Position numbers and translations under genes: made by a program. From NCBI GenBank assembly GCA_011390165.1, contig JAABSV010000002.1:1-64000 (forward strand): a stretch of DNA of 64,000 nt. The letters are read 5' to 3'. Positions within the stretch are counted from its first letter, which is position 1; the number at the start of each line of letters is the position of its first letter. The stretch comes from Desulfobulbaceae bacterium (lineage in GTDB: Bacteria; Desulfobacterota; Desulfobulbia; Desulfobulbales; Desulfocapsaceae). The notes beneath the pieces are model-generated. The model saw only the letters and a program-made list of their open reading frames with translations. It made no database searches and was not told the DNA's origin. This document shows positions 23,473 to 29,213 of the stretch, piece after piece.

Positions 23473-23676
23473 TTGGAGCTCTACTTCATCTGCCCACGCA
23501 AAGGGGTTCTTTTTGCGAGCGACGGTTACCGTCTGGGCGAAAATCATGGGGTGCGCGAAAAGGCGGACGGCGGCAGGGTTTTGCAGGGAGAGGTCGCTTT
23601 GACCACCCTATGTCCGCACTGCGGTGAAAAGCATATCTACCGGGTCGACGAGGTGATCTGCCCGAGCGGGAGATGA
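23473..23676 (+). CDS. Small zinc-ribbon-like protein upstream of selD, function unknown
   Basis: 67 residues from a TTG start 7 bases after aggag; in-frame GTG 23452 and TTG 23467 are alternatives. Four Cys are spaced as in a zinc ribbon: C in ELYFICPRKG, then CPHCGEKH, then VICPSG. I recognise no named family. Its TGA stop overlaps one possible selD ATG (ATGA at 23673), so the two are translationally coupled. This placement suggests a role in selenium or redox metabolism, but that is only context. Confidence 0.6.
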   Translation: MELYFICPRKGVLFASDGYRLGENHGVREKADGGRVLQGEVALTTLCPHCGEKHIYRVDEVICPSGR

Positions 23677-23678
23677 GG

Positions 23679-24725
23679 ATGGGCGCCGAAAAAACGTATC
23701 TGACCCGCTGTGTCAAAGGGGGCGGCTGAGCTGCCAAGATCGCTCCAGGGGACCTGGAGCAGGTTTTGCGCGGGCTCGATTTTCCCACTGACGACCAGGT
23801 TCTGGTGGGGGCGGAAAGCGCTGATGATGCCGGTGTGTACCGGATCTCCGACGAGCTGGCGCTCATCCAGACGGTGGATTTCTTCACCCCGATCGTCGAC
23901 GACCCTTACGATTTCGGCCGGATTGCCGCCGCCAATGCCCTCTCTGATGTCTACGCCATGGGTGGAGTGCCGAAGACCGCCCTCAATATCGTTGCCTACC
24001 CCATTGCCAAACTTGGCCCGGAGGTCCTGCGGGCGATGCTTGCCGGTGGCATCGCCACCCTGCGGCAGGCCGAGACCGTGCTGCTGGGCGGGCACAGCGT
24101 CGACGATGACGAGCTGAAGTACGGCCTGTCGGTGACCGGTTTTGTCCACCCGGCGAAAATCCGCACCAACCAGGGGCTGCGGGTGGGCGACTGTCTGCTG
24201 CTCACCAAGCCCCTCGGCACCGGCATCATCAATACCGCGGTGAAGGGTGGTTTGGCGTCCGTGGCCACGGTGCAACGGGTCACCGAACTGATGGCTGCCC
24301 TCAACCGGCGGGCCGCCGAGGTGATGGCCGGTTTTTCGGTCTCCGCCTGCACCGATGTCACCGGCTTCGGTCTCATTGGTCATCTGGCCGAGATGGTCAG
24401 CGGCAGTGGCCTCACCGTGATCCTCGACACTGCCCGTGTGCCGGTTATCCCCGAGGCCCTGGAATTCGCCGCCATCGGGCTGGTGCCGGTGGGTGCCCAC
24501 CGCAACCGCAGCTTCCGTGAGAAGATGGTGGTCGTTCCGCCCGGCTTCAGCGCCATTCTCCGCGATCTGCTTTACGACCCGCAGACCTCGGGCGGCCTGC
24601 TCATCGGCTGCCCGGAAGGAGAGGCAGCGGTCCTCGAGGAGAGATTGCGGGCCGAGGGGATGGAGGAGGCGGCAATCATCGGCTACGTTCGGGACAGCAA
24701 CCGGGAGCAGATAGTCCTCACCTGA
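23679..24725 (+). CDS. selD: Selenide, water dikinase (SelD), itself a selenoprotein
   Basis: 348 residues when the TGA at 23727-23729 is read as selenocysteine (Sec17). SelD makes selenophosphate from selenide and ATP, the selenium donor for Sec-tRNA. Sec falls exactly at the catalytic position (Cys17 in the E. coli enzyme), in KGGG-Sec-AAKI, followed by Lys20. The rest is standard: SADDAGVY, VDFFTPIVDDPYDFGRIAAANALSDVYAMGG, LGGHSVDD, DVTGFGLIGHL, DPQTSGGLL. A gene caller stopping at TGA would start near 23766 and lose the active site. ATG 23679 has gggag 6 bases upstream; ATG 23673 is also in frame. Confidence 0.93.
23742..23760 (+). promoter_or_regulatory. Candidate bacterial SECIS hairpin of selD
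   Basis: A perfect 8-base stem (gctccagg at 23742-23749, cctggagc at 23753-23760) closes a GGA loop. The loop begins 21 bases after the Sec TGA. Bacterial SECIS elements sit inside the coding region with the apical loop about 16-37 bases after UGA and a G at one of the first two loop positions, both met here. SelB should bind it. Confidence 0.75.
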
Positions 24726-24805: not shown

Positions 24806-25423
24806 ATGTCCCTCACCTTAGATGCCCGGGGGCTGGCCTGCCCCGCTCCGGTTCTACTCATCAAGGATGCCATTGAGCAACAGAACCCGGAAACGATGAC
24901 CGTATTTGTCGATAACGATGCCTCCCGGGAAAACGTTGGCCGTTTTCTGGCCAGCCGCGGCTATTCGGTGAGCGAAAAGGCCGATGGCAGTGACTGGACA
25001 CTGGTTGCCAGCCGTGACCAGTCCACCCAGGCCGGTACGGCGGCGGCAGCCACCGCCCGCCCGGCTGCCCCACCGGCGGGGAAGCAGAAGATTCTGGTGC
25101 TGATCGGCAACGAACGGCTGGGGGGAGGCGACGACCAGCTTGGCGCCAAGCTGATGGTCAACTATATAAAAACACTGAAAGAATTGGGGGGCGACCTTTG
25201 GCAGCTGATCTTTCTCAACAGCGGCGTTCGGCTGACCATCGGTTCCTCACCGGTGCTCGCCGAACTGCAGGAGTACGAGAAGCGGGGGACAATTGTGCTC
25301 GCCTGCGGCACCTGTCTGGAACATTTCGGTCTCACCGCCAGCAAGGCGGTAGGTGGCAGCACCAACATGCTCGACATCGTTACCGCCAGCCAGTTGGCCG
25401 ACAAGGTGATCAGCCTCGGCTGA
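24806..25423 (+). CDS. yedF: Selenium metabolism protein YedF (TusA-DsrE fusion)
   Basis: 205 residues. N-terminal TusA-like domain (LTLDARGLACPAPVLLIKDAI, with the conserved CPxP Cys) and a C-terminal DsrE-like domain (KILVLIGNERLGGGDDQLGAKLMVNYIKTL, VLACGTCLEHFGL), joined by an Ala/Pro-rich linker at about 72-95. YedF genes track with selD across bacteria, and the protein is thought to carry or deliver selenium as a perselenide, although biochemical proof is limited. It lies 80 bases after selD with ribosome site aaaggagaaa. It probably shares the selD transcript. Confidence 0.9.
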   Translation: MSLTLDARGLACPAPVLLIKDAIEQQNPETMTVFVDNDASRENVGRFLASRGYSVSEKADGSDWTLVASRDQSTQAGTAAAATARPAAPPAGKQKILVLIGNERLGGGDDQLGAKLMVNYIKTLKELGGDLWQLIFLNSGVRLTIGSSPVLAELQEYEKRGTIVLACGTCLEHFGLTASKAVGGSTNMLDIVTASQLADKVISLG

Positions 25424-26466: not shown

Positions 26467-26760
26467 TCAGCAACCGCAGCCGTTCGACTGTTTGTTAAGA
26501 ACTCTGGCCAGCCAGCTGTTGATGATATAGTGGGCGCAACCGCAACCGTCATCCGGGTTGACGAAGAGCGCCTCAACCGGGCAGTTTCTGGCACAGGCAC
26601 CACACTCCATACAGGCGTTGCCATCGGTGATACGGGCCTTTCCGTCGTTCAGAGTAAAGAGCCGGTGCGGGCAGACCTCCAGGCAATTGCCACAGCCGAT
26701 GCATTTCTCTGCATCAAGGCGGAGGATGGCGGTGTCGTCGAGATATCTGTAGCCTTGCAT
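26467..26760 (-). CDS. hgcB: HgcB, ferredoxin of mercury methylation
   Basis: 97 residues from ATG 26760, which follows a perfect aggaggt site. Two 4Fe-4S motifs: Cys20, 23, 26, 30 (CIGCGNCLEVC) and Cys50, 53, 56, 60 (CMECGACARNC). An extra Cys73 lies in NPDDGCGCAHYIINSWL, at the same position as the essential extra Cys73 described for HgcB of Desulfovibrio ND132. The protein ends in CGC, a variant of the family's terminal Cys pair. HgcB is thought to pass electrons to, and bind Hg for, HgcA. It starts 16 bases after hgcA stops, the normal gene order. Confidence 0.92.
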   Translation of the reverse strand: MQGYRYLDDTAILRLDAEKCIGCGNCLEVCPHRLFTLNDGKARITDGNACMECGACARNCPVEALFVNPDDGCGCAHYIINSWLARVLNKQSNGCGC

Positions 26761-26776: not shown

Positions 26777-27967
26777 TCAGAAAAATGGTGCCGCCAACCA
26801 GAGGAGCAGGGCGAGCAGGGCGGTGCCAATCTGGAAGGGGAGGCCCCGACGCATCTCTTTGGCTACCCCGGACAGAGAGGTGTAGGGGGTGGAGCCGGTG
26901 AAACACATCGCCAGGTAGGAGGCGCAACCACCGATCCAGAGGAGCAGGGCGAGCAGTTCCAGACGGGCCAGCCCCTCGCCGGCAACGGTAACAAATATCA
27001 GGCCGGCGAGCAGGCCAAGCACCGCCCCTTTCAGCCAGAACTGGCGAAAAGGAAGCCAGGGGAGGAGAAGGGGGGTGGCGATCGCCCCGGCGAAGATCGC
27101 CGCAGCGTTGGCGAGGGCCAGGGTAGTACCCCGGCGGAGGGCGGCCTCGACGGTAAAAAACTCCGGAGAGATTCCGGAGAGGAGAAAAAAGAGCAGGCTG
27201 GCGAGAAGGAGTTTTTTCCACAGCAGGCAGATTTCAACCGGAATGAGTACCGCCCGTTCAGAGAGCCGGAAGGTGACACTGCGCATCGCCTCATCCGCTT
27301 CTCCCCGGCGGAGATATTCGGGCAGGTCGGTGGCGAGGATCGGCCCGAAACGGCCGAGAAAGCCGCACAGTTTCTTCAGCTCCCCGGCCCGCACGCCGTT
27401 GGCGGAGAGCTGCGGCAGGATCAGCTGGCGATGGTTAACCAGCTGGGCCAGGCCACTGTTCTGTACCTGATAGGCAACCTCGGCGGCGGAAAAGGTCCCC
27501 TTCCCGCCGGCACACCAGACATTGATGCCCCGGGTATCGACCACCAGCAGCCAGAGGTGGTGCCCGGCCAGTTCCTGGCGGACGGTGTCGACACTCAGTT
27601 TGTAGTTGCCGGTGACCAACACCGGGCTGTTACCGTCCGGTTCACCCAGGCAGTAGAGGCCGGGAACCATCAGGTAGCTGTTGCGCCTGAGACCGCTGCG
27701 AACGGCGATGGTGCCGAGGCGGTCACGCCAGCTGAGACGGGTGGCGAGGCGCGCCACCGGCCCGAGGGAGGTGGTATGGAAGCCGTCGACAAAGGGAGAG
27801 ATGCGGTAGCCGGGGCGTTCAAAGCCACTGGACCGTGGCGGCGGCTTCGGCCCTCAGCAGGGGGCATCGGCGACTTCGGCGGGTATCTGCGGGAATCCAC
27901 TCAGCCCGTCCCCACTGCAGAGAGGCGGAGCGAGGGGGGCGATGGTGTGTTGCAGCTGTTCCGGCAT
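26777..27967 (-). CDS. hgcA: HgcA, corrinoid mercury methyltransferase; candidate selenoprotein (TGA at 27854-27856 read through)
   Basis: 396 residues if the in-frame TGA is read as selenocysteine (residue 38). The corrinoid domain has the cap-helix motif NVWCAGGKGTF (family N(V/I)WCAAGK; Cys152 would be the cobalt ligand), preceded by VPGLYCLGEPDGNSPVLVTGNYKLS. Five membrane helices follow from about residue 235, as in known HgcA. Conserved family sequence (FERPGYRISPFVDGF and GPVARLATRL) lies between the TGA and the first possible later start, GTG 27757, which also has no ribosome site. So the TGA lies inside the gene. The context is APC-Sec-GPKPPP, where I recall a Cys-Cys-Gly-Pro pair in relatives. 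ATG 27967 is the only upstream start and its ribosome site is weak. Cofactor-bound CH3 moves to Hg(II). Confidence 0.88.
27824..27839 (-). promoter_or_regulatory. Candidate SECIS hairpin of hgcA
   Basis: On the minus strand, 14 bases after the TGA, a perfect 5-base stem (gccac/gtggc) closes a 6-base loop ggtcca. The loop starts 20 bases after the TGA and begins with GG, nearly the same geometry as in selD (21 bases, GGA loop). An aag/ttt pairing below the stem could lengthen it after a bulge. This is the expected position and shape for SelB recruitment; it has not been folded by software. Confidence 0.6.
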
Positions 27968-28043: not shown

Positions 28044-29213
28044 TCACCCGTTAGAAATAAGCATGCCGAAGCCGTCGGCAAGGTCGGCGAGCAGATCTTC
28101 CGGCTCTTCCAGCCCGATATTAAGGCGGATCAGGGTCTTGCCACGGTAGCGGCAGGTCAGGTTCCGCCGTACCCGGCTGGCGGTGATCAGGCTTTTTGAG
28201 CCACCCCAGCTGTAGCCGATGGCAAAGAGCTGCAGGGCGTTGATGGCGGTGGCCAGTTGCACGTCGCTGTACTCCCTGGTCAGGGTGAAGGCAAAGAGGC
28301 CTGAGGAGCCGCTGAAATCGCGCCGCCAGAGCCAGTGCTGGGGGTGTTCCGGAAAGGCCGGGTGGAGAACCTCGCCGACTCCCGGCTGCCCCTGCAGCCA
28401 GCGGGCGATGGTGATGGCCGACTCTTCGTGCCGACGGAGCCTGGTGGCCAGAGAGTGCAGACCACGCAGGGCAAGGGAGCAGATTTCCGCCGGCGTGTAG
28501 ATCTCCAGATCCTTGTAATAATCGGCAAAACGTTGGGCATGGCGGGCCGAGACGGTGACCGCGCCGGCGAGAATGTCGGAGTAGCCGCCGATGTACTTGC
28601 TGACCGAGTGGATGGAGAGATCGACACCGAGGGCCAGCGGTTTCAGGTAGAGGGGGGTGGCCCAGCTGGCATCGAGCATGGTGACGATCCCCCGCTCCCT
28701 GGCGATGGCAGTGATTGCCTGGATATCCTGGAGTTCAAAGGTGAGCGAGCCGGGTGATTCGAGGAGGATTACCCGGGTGTTGGGGCGGAGGTGGTCAAGG
28801 ATGTCGGCGCCGACATCGGGGGGGAGAAGGGTGGATTCCACCCCGAACCGTGGCAGGATCTTGCGGCAGAAGCGCTGGCTCGGGCCGTAGGCGTTGTCGC
28901 AGAGGAGCAGGTGGTCGCCCTGGCCGACAAAGGCCGACAGGGCGGTCTGGACGGCATGGATGCCGGAGGGAAAGACCCGGCACAGGGCCCCTCCCTCCAG
29001 TTCGCGCAGTGCCTCTTCAAACTGGCGCTGGGTAGGCAGTCGATCGGTGCCGTAGCTTATTCCGGGATACTCGTTGCGGCCCGCCTGACAGAATTCCTCG
29101 TAGTTGTTGAAGAGTACGGTCGAACCGCGGTAGAGGGGCGGGTGGATGGTGGTGGCCGGGGTGGTATCCCGTTCCGTCCAGATGGTTTGCAGTATCCTGC
29201 TCGCTTCGTGCAT
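28044..29213 (-). CDS. metC: PLP-dependent cystathionine beta-lyase (MetC type)
   Basis: 389 residues, Cys/Met metabolism PLP enzyme. Lys206 in IHSVSKYIGGYSD binds pyridoxal phosphate; PPLYRGSTVLF, YGTDRLPTQRQFEEALRELEGG and the C-terminal SWGGSKSLI, VRLNIGLE-like LIRLNIGLEEPEDLLADL are typical. The SWGG pattern fits beta-lyase (MetC) better than gamma-synthase. It splits cystathionine to homocysteine, pyruvate and ammonia. It is 76 bases upstream of hgcA on the same strand, with no terminator seen between, so metC-hgcA-hgcB may be one transcript. Methionine supply for methylation is a tempting but unproven link. Confidence 0.85.
   Translation of the reverse strand: MHEASRILQTIWTERDTTPATTIHPPLYRGSTVLFNNYEEFCQAGRNEYPGISYGTDRLPTQRQFEEALRELEGGALCRVFPSGIHAVQTALSAFVGQGDHLLLCDNAYGPSQRFCRKILPRFGVESTLLPPDVGADILDHLRPNTRVILLESPGSLTFELQDIQAITAIARERGIVTMLDASWATPLYLKPLALGVDLSIHSVSKYIGGYSDILAGAVTVSARHAQRFADYYKDLEIYTPAEICSLALRGLHSLATRLRRHEESAITIARWLQGQPGVGEVLHPAFPEHPQHWLWRRDFSGSSGLFAFTLTREYSDVQLATAINALQLFAIGYSWGGSKSLITASRVRRNLTCRYRGKTLIRLNIGLEEPEDLLADLADGFGMLISNG

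What the first reader, a model, noticed from the sequence alone, without database searches (positions are those of the whole stretch)
26777..27967. HgcA appears to be a selenoprotein: in-frame TGA inside the N-terminal conserved region
Read on the minus strand from ATG 27967, hgcA is open except for one TGA (27854-27856) in APC-TGA-GPKPPP. Family-like sequence continues unbroken on both sides, and the segment between the TGA and the first later start codon (FERPGYRISPFVDGF) is the kind of sequence I recall from HgcA relatives, many of which carry CysCys-Gly-Pro here. So Sec would replace the second Cys. A 5-base stem with a GG-starting loop lies 20 bases after the TGA. The same window encodes a Sec-containing SelD with matching geometry, showing that this genome decodes UGA as Sec. 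I know of no report of a Sec form of the mercury methyltransferase. A Cys-Sec pair would be a strong, soft Hg ligand and a redox handle.
Basis: partly seen in the sequence, partly recalled or inferred. Interest (0 to 1): 0.95.

Follow-up and report, generated by a model that had tools for sequence, protein, structure and literature searches.

The report
Selenocysteine form of mercury methyltransferase HgcA
The gene for the bacterial enzyme that makes toxic methylmercury really does carry a built-in selenium amino acid here; that such forms exist was predicted in 2023, but this survey finds them in about two fifths of the enzyme's genes in this phylum, and the laboratory model enzyme is probably one too, studied so far without its selenium-bearing end.

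Summary
hgcA (26777-27967, minus) is open except for one in-frame TGA (27854-27856, C-U-G-P). It is not an error: the same TGA sits at the same column in 69 distinct hgcA genes, against Cys (TGC/TGT) in 38 relatives, at an almost fixed distance (114 codons) from the cobalt-binding Cys. A covarying bacterial SECIS hairpin follows it in 67/69 Sec genes, against 9/37 Cys genes and a mean of 31.5 (maximum 40) of 69 after synonymous shuffling. The genome has tRNA-Sec, SelB and a Sec-type SelD. The claim of novelty fails: Sec forms of HgcA ("CU") and HgcB ("GVGU") are already catalogued (Haft & Gwadz 2023, cited in a 2026 review and PNAS 2024). What I add is extent. 43 of 104 readable hgcA genes in an even phylum draw are Sec type. 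All 21 Pseudodesulfovibrio genomes with a substantial hgcA have the TGA. ND132, the biochemical model, belongs to that genus, and its published numbering (cap Cys93) implies a start 22 codons after the UGA, so the studied protein probably lacks the Cys-Sec segment. I could not obtain ND132's sequence or read the 2023 paper. Likely role: accessory soft Hg(II) or redox ligand pair (inferred).

The parts
26777..27967 (-). hgcA, read through one TGA: 396 aa, corrinoid domain plus five-helix membrane domain
   Evidence: NF040863, 395 bits; AlphaFold2 mean pLDDT 90.9
27854..27856 (-). in-frame TGA = Sec38 (second position of the N-terminal Cys-Cys/Cys-Sec pair)
   Evidence: TGA in 69 unique genes, TGC/TGT in Cys relatives
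27857..27859 (-). TGC = Cys37, first residue of the pair
   Evidence: nearly invariant
27824..27839 (-). bSECIS hairpin GCCAC-GGTCCA-GTGGC, apical loop beginning with GG, 19 nt between UGA and loop
27512..27514 (-). Cys152 of the cap motif NVWCAGGK (equals published Cys93), Cys in every homologue, not Sec
   Evidence: role from PMC11588087
27755..27757 (-). GTG, the first start codon after the UGA: the false start that a Sec-unaware caller would take (326-aa ORF)
   Evidence: no Shine-Dalgarno
26467..26760 (-). hgcB, di-cluster ferredoxin, Cys form (DDGCGCA in place of GVGCA; tail GCGC then ordinary TGA stop)
   Evidence: (NF040864, 112.1 bits, cut-off 99)
23673..24725 (+). selD with Sec (TGA 23727-23729, GGG-U-AAK) and its own strong SECIS hairpin; start codon approximate
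   Evidence: (TIGR00476, 378.5 bits)
24806..25423 (+). yedF, selenium-metabolism sulfurtransferase-like protein
   Evidence: TIGR03527, 200.7 bits

Best explanation
This is a genuine selenoprotein form of HgcA. UGA at 27854-27856 is read as selenocysteine by SelB and tRNA-Sec, steered by the SECIS hairpin just downstream (shown by comparative sequence, not by experiment). The product carries a Cys37-Sec38 pair in an N-terminal segment ahead of the corrinoid domain. The pair most likely binds Hg(II) (or another soft, thiophilic substrate) and passes it to the methyl-cobalamin centre, in parallel with the HgcB cysteines; this step is inferred. The cobalt ligand itself (Cys152, published Cys93) stays Cys. 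The pair is accessory rather than the methyl-transfer centre.
For: TGA at one column in 69 unique genes, Cys at that column in 38. Hairpin in 67/69 Sec genes, 9/37 Cys genes, mean 31.5 and maximum 40 of 69 in synonymous shuffles. Covariation score 0.344 against at most 0.107 for slid registers, 21 double-change cells against 10 shuffled, 0/500, including third-codon-position swaps A-U, C-G, G-C. 67 Sec genes form one clade with no reversion to Cys. Coding on both sides of the UGA is under purifying selection: pN/pS 0.36 before, 0.23 in the 22 codons after, 0.26 in the rest. tRNA-Sec 70.4 bits, SelB 332.9 bits, Sec-SelD in the window. A start with a Shine-Dalgarno match of at least 4 nt lies before the UGA in 46/69 genes and after it, within 45 codons, in 18/69. 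AlphaFold2 places residues 31-40 at mean pLDDT 71 and 41-50 at 87, so the pair is at the edge of the ordered domain.
Against: No protein-level evidence. The Hg-binding role is untested, and the real substrate of HgcAB in the cell is not settled. If the ND132 protein used in vitro lacks the pair, then methylation in E. coli lysates (PMC11588087) shows the pair is not essential for the chemistry. In the phylum census the residue before Sec is Cys in only 34/43, so a strict Cys-Sec chelate is not universal. The window gene's own ATG has no good Shine-Dalgarno.
Confidence: 0.95

Rival explanations
1. The UGA is a true stop and HgcA starts downstream of it (GTG 27757 here; GTG 22 codons after the UGA in many Pseudodesulfovibrio genes), so the upstream frame is a leader peptide or noise.
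For: Pipelines annotate such starts; the published ND132 HgcA works in lysates; the curated NF040863 profile itself begins after the motif.
Against: Cys codons replace TGA at that column in relatives; purifying selection across the UGA; a covarying SECIS; the post-UGA GTGs mostly lack a Shine-Dalgarno and several genes have GTC or GTT there.
Confidence: 0.03
2. Nonsense mutation, pseudogene or sequencing error.
For: The window comes from a 108-contig assembly and raw reads cannot be seen.
Against: The same codon occurs in 69 unique genes, several from cultured type strains such as Desulforhopalus singaporensis DSM 12130 and Desulfoprunum benzoelyticum DSM 28570; the rest of the frame is intact.
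Confidence: 0.005
3. It is a Sec protein, but the Cys-Sec pair serves redox chemistry (reducing cobalamin, accepting electrons from HgcB, or protecting the site) rather than holding Hg(II).
For: Cys-Sec pairs are common redox motifs (general knowledge); in some genes Cys is absent next to Sec, which suits a single selenolate function.
Against: HgcB already supplies two [4Fe-4S] clusters for electron transfer (PMC11588087); vicinal soft-ligand pairs are typical of Hg trafficking proteins (PMC7305189 makes this argument for the HgcB tail).
Confidence: 0.35

Closest known systems
Sec-containing HgcA, NCBIfam NF040863, motif CU (Haft & Gwadz 2023; review PMC13188914)
   Same: Same family, same Cys-Sec motif.
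   Different: This gene is a further member. The survey here adds how common the form is, SECIS covariation, the single large clade, and the likely truncation of the ND132 reference protein; the 2023 paper was not held, so it may contain part of this.
Pseudodesulfovibrio mercurii ND132 HgcA (published numbering, cap Cys93)
   Same: Same domains and cap motif; congeneric genes have the same C-U-G-P.
   Different: The published protein starts 22 codons after the column of the UGA; the window protein is read from before it.
Sec-containing HgcB, NF040864, motif GVGU
   Same: Partner protein that can also carry Sec, at the conserved Cys73.
   Different: The window HgcB has Cys only, with a C-G-C insertion at that place; Sec-HgcB was seen here only in L099 and L115, whose HgcA is Cys type.
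CFeSP large subunit (2ycl, 4djd)
   Same: Corrinoid-binding fold.
   Different: The match covers only the corrinoid domain; no HgcA membrane domain and no matching N-terminal Cys-Sec segment.

Membership tests
HgcA (NF040863) | Profile score above the curated cut-off | tested here: met
   395 bits against 275
HgcA (NF040863) | Cap motif N(V/I)WCA(A/G)GK | tested here: met
   GINVWCAGGK, Cys152 invariant
HgcA (NF040863) | C-terminal five-helix membrane domain | tested here: met
   Helices 235-263, 273-300, 310-329, 335-357, 365-395 in the model
HgcA (NF040863) | hgcB adjacent | tested here: met
   26467-26760, NF040864 at 112.1 bits
HgcA (NF040863) | Methylates Hg(II) | not testable with these tools
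   no assay
Bacterial selenoprotein | In-frame UGA aligned with Cys in homologues | tested here: met
[quoted passage not shown]
   5-bp stem, 6-nt loop GGTCCA, spacing 19 (rule from PMC13188914)
Bacterial selenoprotein | SelB, tRNA-Sec and SelD in the genome | tested here: met
   (selA not searched)
Bacterial selenoprotein | Sec present in the protein | not testable with these tools
   needs 75Se labelling or mass spectrometry

The most novel reading that the evidence does not exclude
The reference mercury methyltransferase, ND132 HgcA, is itself a selenoprotein whose annotated sequence begins after the UGA. If so, structural and mechanistic work on recombinant HgcA has used a protein without its Cys-Sec segment, and selenium supply may influence methylmercury formation in a large share of methylators.
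Probability: 0.75. Interest if true: 0.8.

Novelty: new member of a known kind. Interest (0 to 1): 0.6.

Why it matters
HgcA makes the neurotoxin methylmercury. If two fifths of hgcA genes in this phylum encode selenoproteins, then gene calls, reference alignments and recombinant proteins for them are likely to be cut short, and selenium, usually discussed as an antagonist of mercury, becomes a possible constituent of the methylating enzyme. The ND132 prediction is directly testable with an existing laboratory strain.

Tried and rejected
Haft & Gwadz 2023: not held, so its exact content is unknown to me. Zhang & Gladyshev 2008 (PMC2398784), cited by the review for HgcA, does not mention it in its main text under the terms I tried, nor does Peng 2016. 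ND132's own genome could not be identified among the unnamed congeners. Rfam on the window: nothing. The TGA closing the window's hgcB was considered as Sec and rejected: several relatives end at the same place with another stop. UGAs at 103, 107 and 120 codons before the cap Cys (L214, L213, L257) were excluded from the census as probable real stops. The L025/L081 TGA lies at a non-Cys position and was not counted as Sec; that gene is CCGP.

Full report
On the minus strand hgcA runs from ATG 27967 to the stop at 26777-26779 with a single in-frame TGA at 27854-27856, in ADAPC-U-GPKPPP. The protein is HgcA by curated profile (NF040863, 395 bits, cut-off 275), with hgcB directly downstream. There is one copy in the genome; the only other match is a weak one (52.7 bits, 35% identity over the corrinoid part).

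Relatives settle the TGA. Of 57 related genomes, most of the nearest hgcA genes carry exactly one in-frame TGA, at the same column; L025 is an exception, with its TGA elsewhere. Over the loci held at that point, 110 unique HgcA sequences were extracted: 69 have TGA and 38 have Cys at the second position of the N-terminal pair, and 3 lack the region. The distance from this position to the cap Cys is 114 codons in 68 of 69 Sec genes and 35 of 38 Cys genes. TAA or TAG never occurs there, and the Cys codons are TGC 25 and TGT 12. Extraction required a Cys before the U, so conservation of the first Cys in this set is partly built in; the census below did not require it.

The SECIS is real by comparison. 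A hairpin meeting the published bSECIS rule for loop, stem and spacing, with my own added demand for at least three G-C pairs in place of the energy limit, follows the TGA in 67/69 Sec genes and 9/37 Cys genes; recoding the Sec genes with synonymous codons gives on average 31.5 and at most 40 of 69. On 27 chosen Sec sequences the window-register stem has 75.6% of cells paired (60.2% shuffled), 21 double-change cells (10.0 shuffled) and covariation score 0.344, against at most 0.107 when the partner is slid by 1-3 columns. The best pair (columns 21-30) lies on two third codon positions and appears as C-G, A-U and G-C. Some lineages shift the register by one base, so cells unpaired in one register are not all broken stems.

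Coding continues through the TGA. In 49 close pairs pN/pS is 0.36 in the eight codons before it, 0.23 in the 22 after and 0.26 in the rest; pS is lowest (0.30 against 0.45) in the SECIS segment, as expected if the RNA is constrained as well. Shine-Dalgarno matches favour starts before the UGA (46/69) over starts after it (18/69), although the window's own ATG lacks one.

The machinery is present: tRNA-Sec at G000:C18 (70.4 bits), SelB at G000:C52 (332.9 bits), and in the window SelD with its own Sec and an 8-bp SECIS stem, next to yedF. In the ND132 genus SelB exceeds the cut-off in 34/36 genomes; one of the two exceptions, G473, is a 2.9-Mb genome that does have a Sec-type hgcA.

Evolution. 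In a 107-row tree 67 Sec genes form one group (support 87/98) spanning Desulfobulbales-type and Desulfovibrionaceae genomes with no return to Cys; L077 and L142 are separate. An even draw of 395 genomes of the phylum gave 114 with HgcA over the cut-off. Their 5' ends were read from the loci and from regions fetched: of 104 readable genes 43 (41%) have UGA 108-114 codons before the cap Cys, 42 of these with a hairpin, often of a second type ggctcAGGTgagcc. A further 29 have Cys-Cys in the neighbourhood and the rest neither. The residue before Sec is Cys in 34/43, so Sec is the better kept of the two.

What is known. The 2026 AEM review lists HgcA (NF040863, motif CU) and HgcB (NF040864, GVGU) as predicted selenoproteins, crediting Haft & Gwadz 2023; the 2024 PNAS paper repeats it in one sentence. 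I could not read the 2023 paper.

What may be new. ND132 is placed in Pseudodesulfovibrio (PMC11588087). Within the held genomes of that genus all 21 with a substantial hgcA carry the TGA, 20 in one piece and one (G470) split over two contigs with the TGA in the 5' piece, context DAPC-stop-GPKPDPRAG. Published ND132 numbering has the cap Cys at 93, with Leu32, Gly33, Val173, Thr174, Glu179, Val186 and Tyr189 (PMC7305189). Counting congeneric proteins so that the cap Cys is 93 gives 5-7 of these 8 residues, lengths of 336-339, and a first codon that is GTG in many but GTC or GTT in others, 22 codons after the UGA. The published protein therefore probably starts after the Cys-Sec pair. This is an inference: ND132's own DNA was not in hand.

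Mechanism. Sec does not replace the cobalt-ligating Cys (published Cys93, Co-S bond; PMC11588087), which is invariant. AlphaFold2 gives a confident model (mean pLDDT 90.9, pTM 0.86) in which most of residues 1-23 are disordered while the blocks 31-40 and 41-50 average 71 and 87; the best structural hit is the deposited HgcAB integrative model 9a0b, followed by CFeSP. I favour a soft-ligand pair that receives Hg(II) near the corrinoid, with a redox role the main rival. Because recombinant ND132 HgcAB methylates Hg in lysates, a protein that probably lacks the pair is still active, so the pair is likely accessory. I put the Sec coding at 0.95 and the Hg-ligand role alone at about 0.5.

Noticed in passing
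23673-24725 (+), TGA 23727-23729: selD is itself a Sec form (GGG-U-AAK) with a strong SECIS hairpin gctccaggGGAcctggagc, followed by yedF at 24806-25423.
   Followed up: yes
26467-26760 (-): HgcB of this clade has P-DDGCGCA in place of the usual PGVGCA around the conserved Cys73 (a two-residue insertion giving C-G-C) and ends in GCGC rather than CC.
   Followed up: partly
L099, L115: HgcB has Sec at the Cys73 position (GVGU), followed by an A/U-richer hairpin with loop GGTC or GGTT, while HgcA in the same loci is the Cys form.
   Followed up: partly
L127, L130, L134, L139, L150 and other U110 rows: A second hgcA type has SCUPP-like motifs 110 codons before the cap Cys and a different SECIS sequence (ggctcAGGTgagcc); in some genes (TUC, GUS, LUA) the Cys before Sec is absent while Sec is kept.
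   Followed up: partly
L025 (same gene as L081): hgcA with Cys-Cys at the motif but an in-frame TGA at a non-Cys position (VGKP-stop-NDSPVLV); probably a nonsense change or assembly error.
   Followed up: no
L259: HgcB tail reads PPDUSD where a relative (L244) has PPQCGC; possibly a further Sec in HgcB or simply the stop.
   Followed up: no
28044-29213 (-): A cystathionine beta-lyase gene (TIGR01324, 377.5 bits) lies directly upstream of hgcA on the same strand.
   Followed up: no
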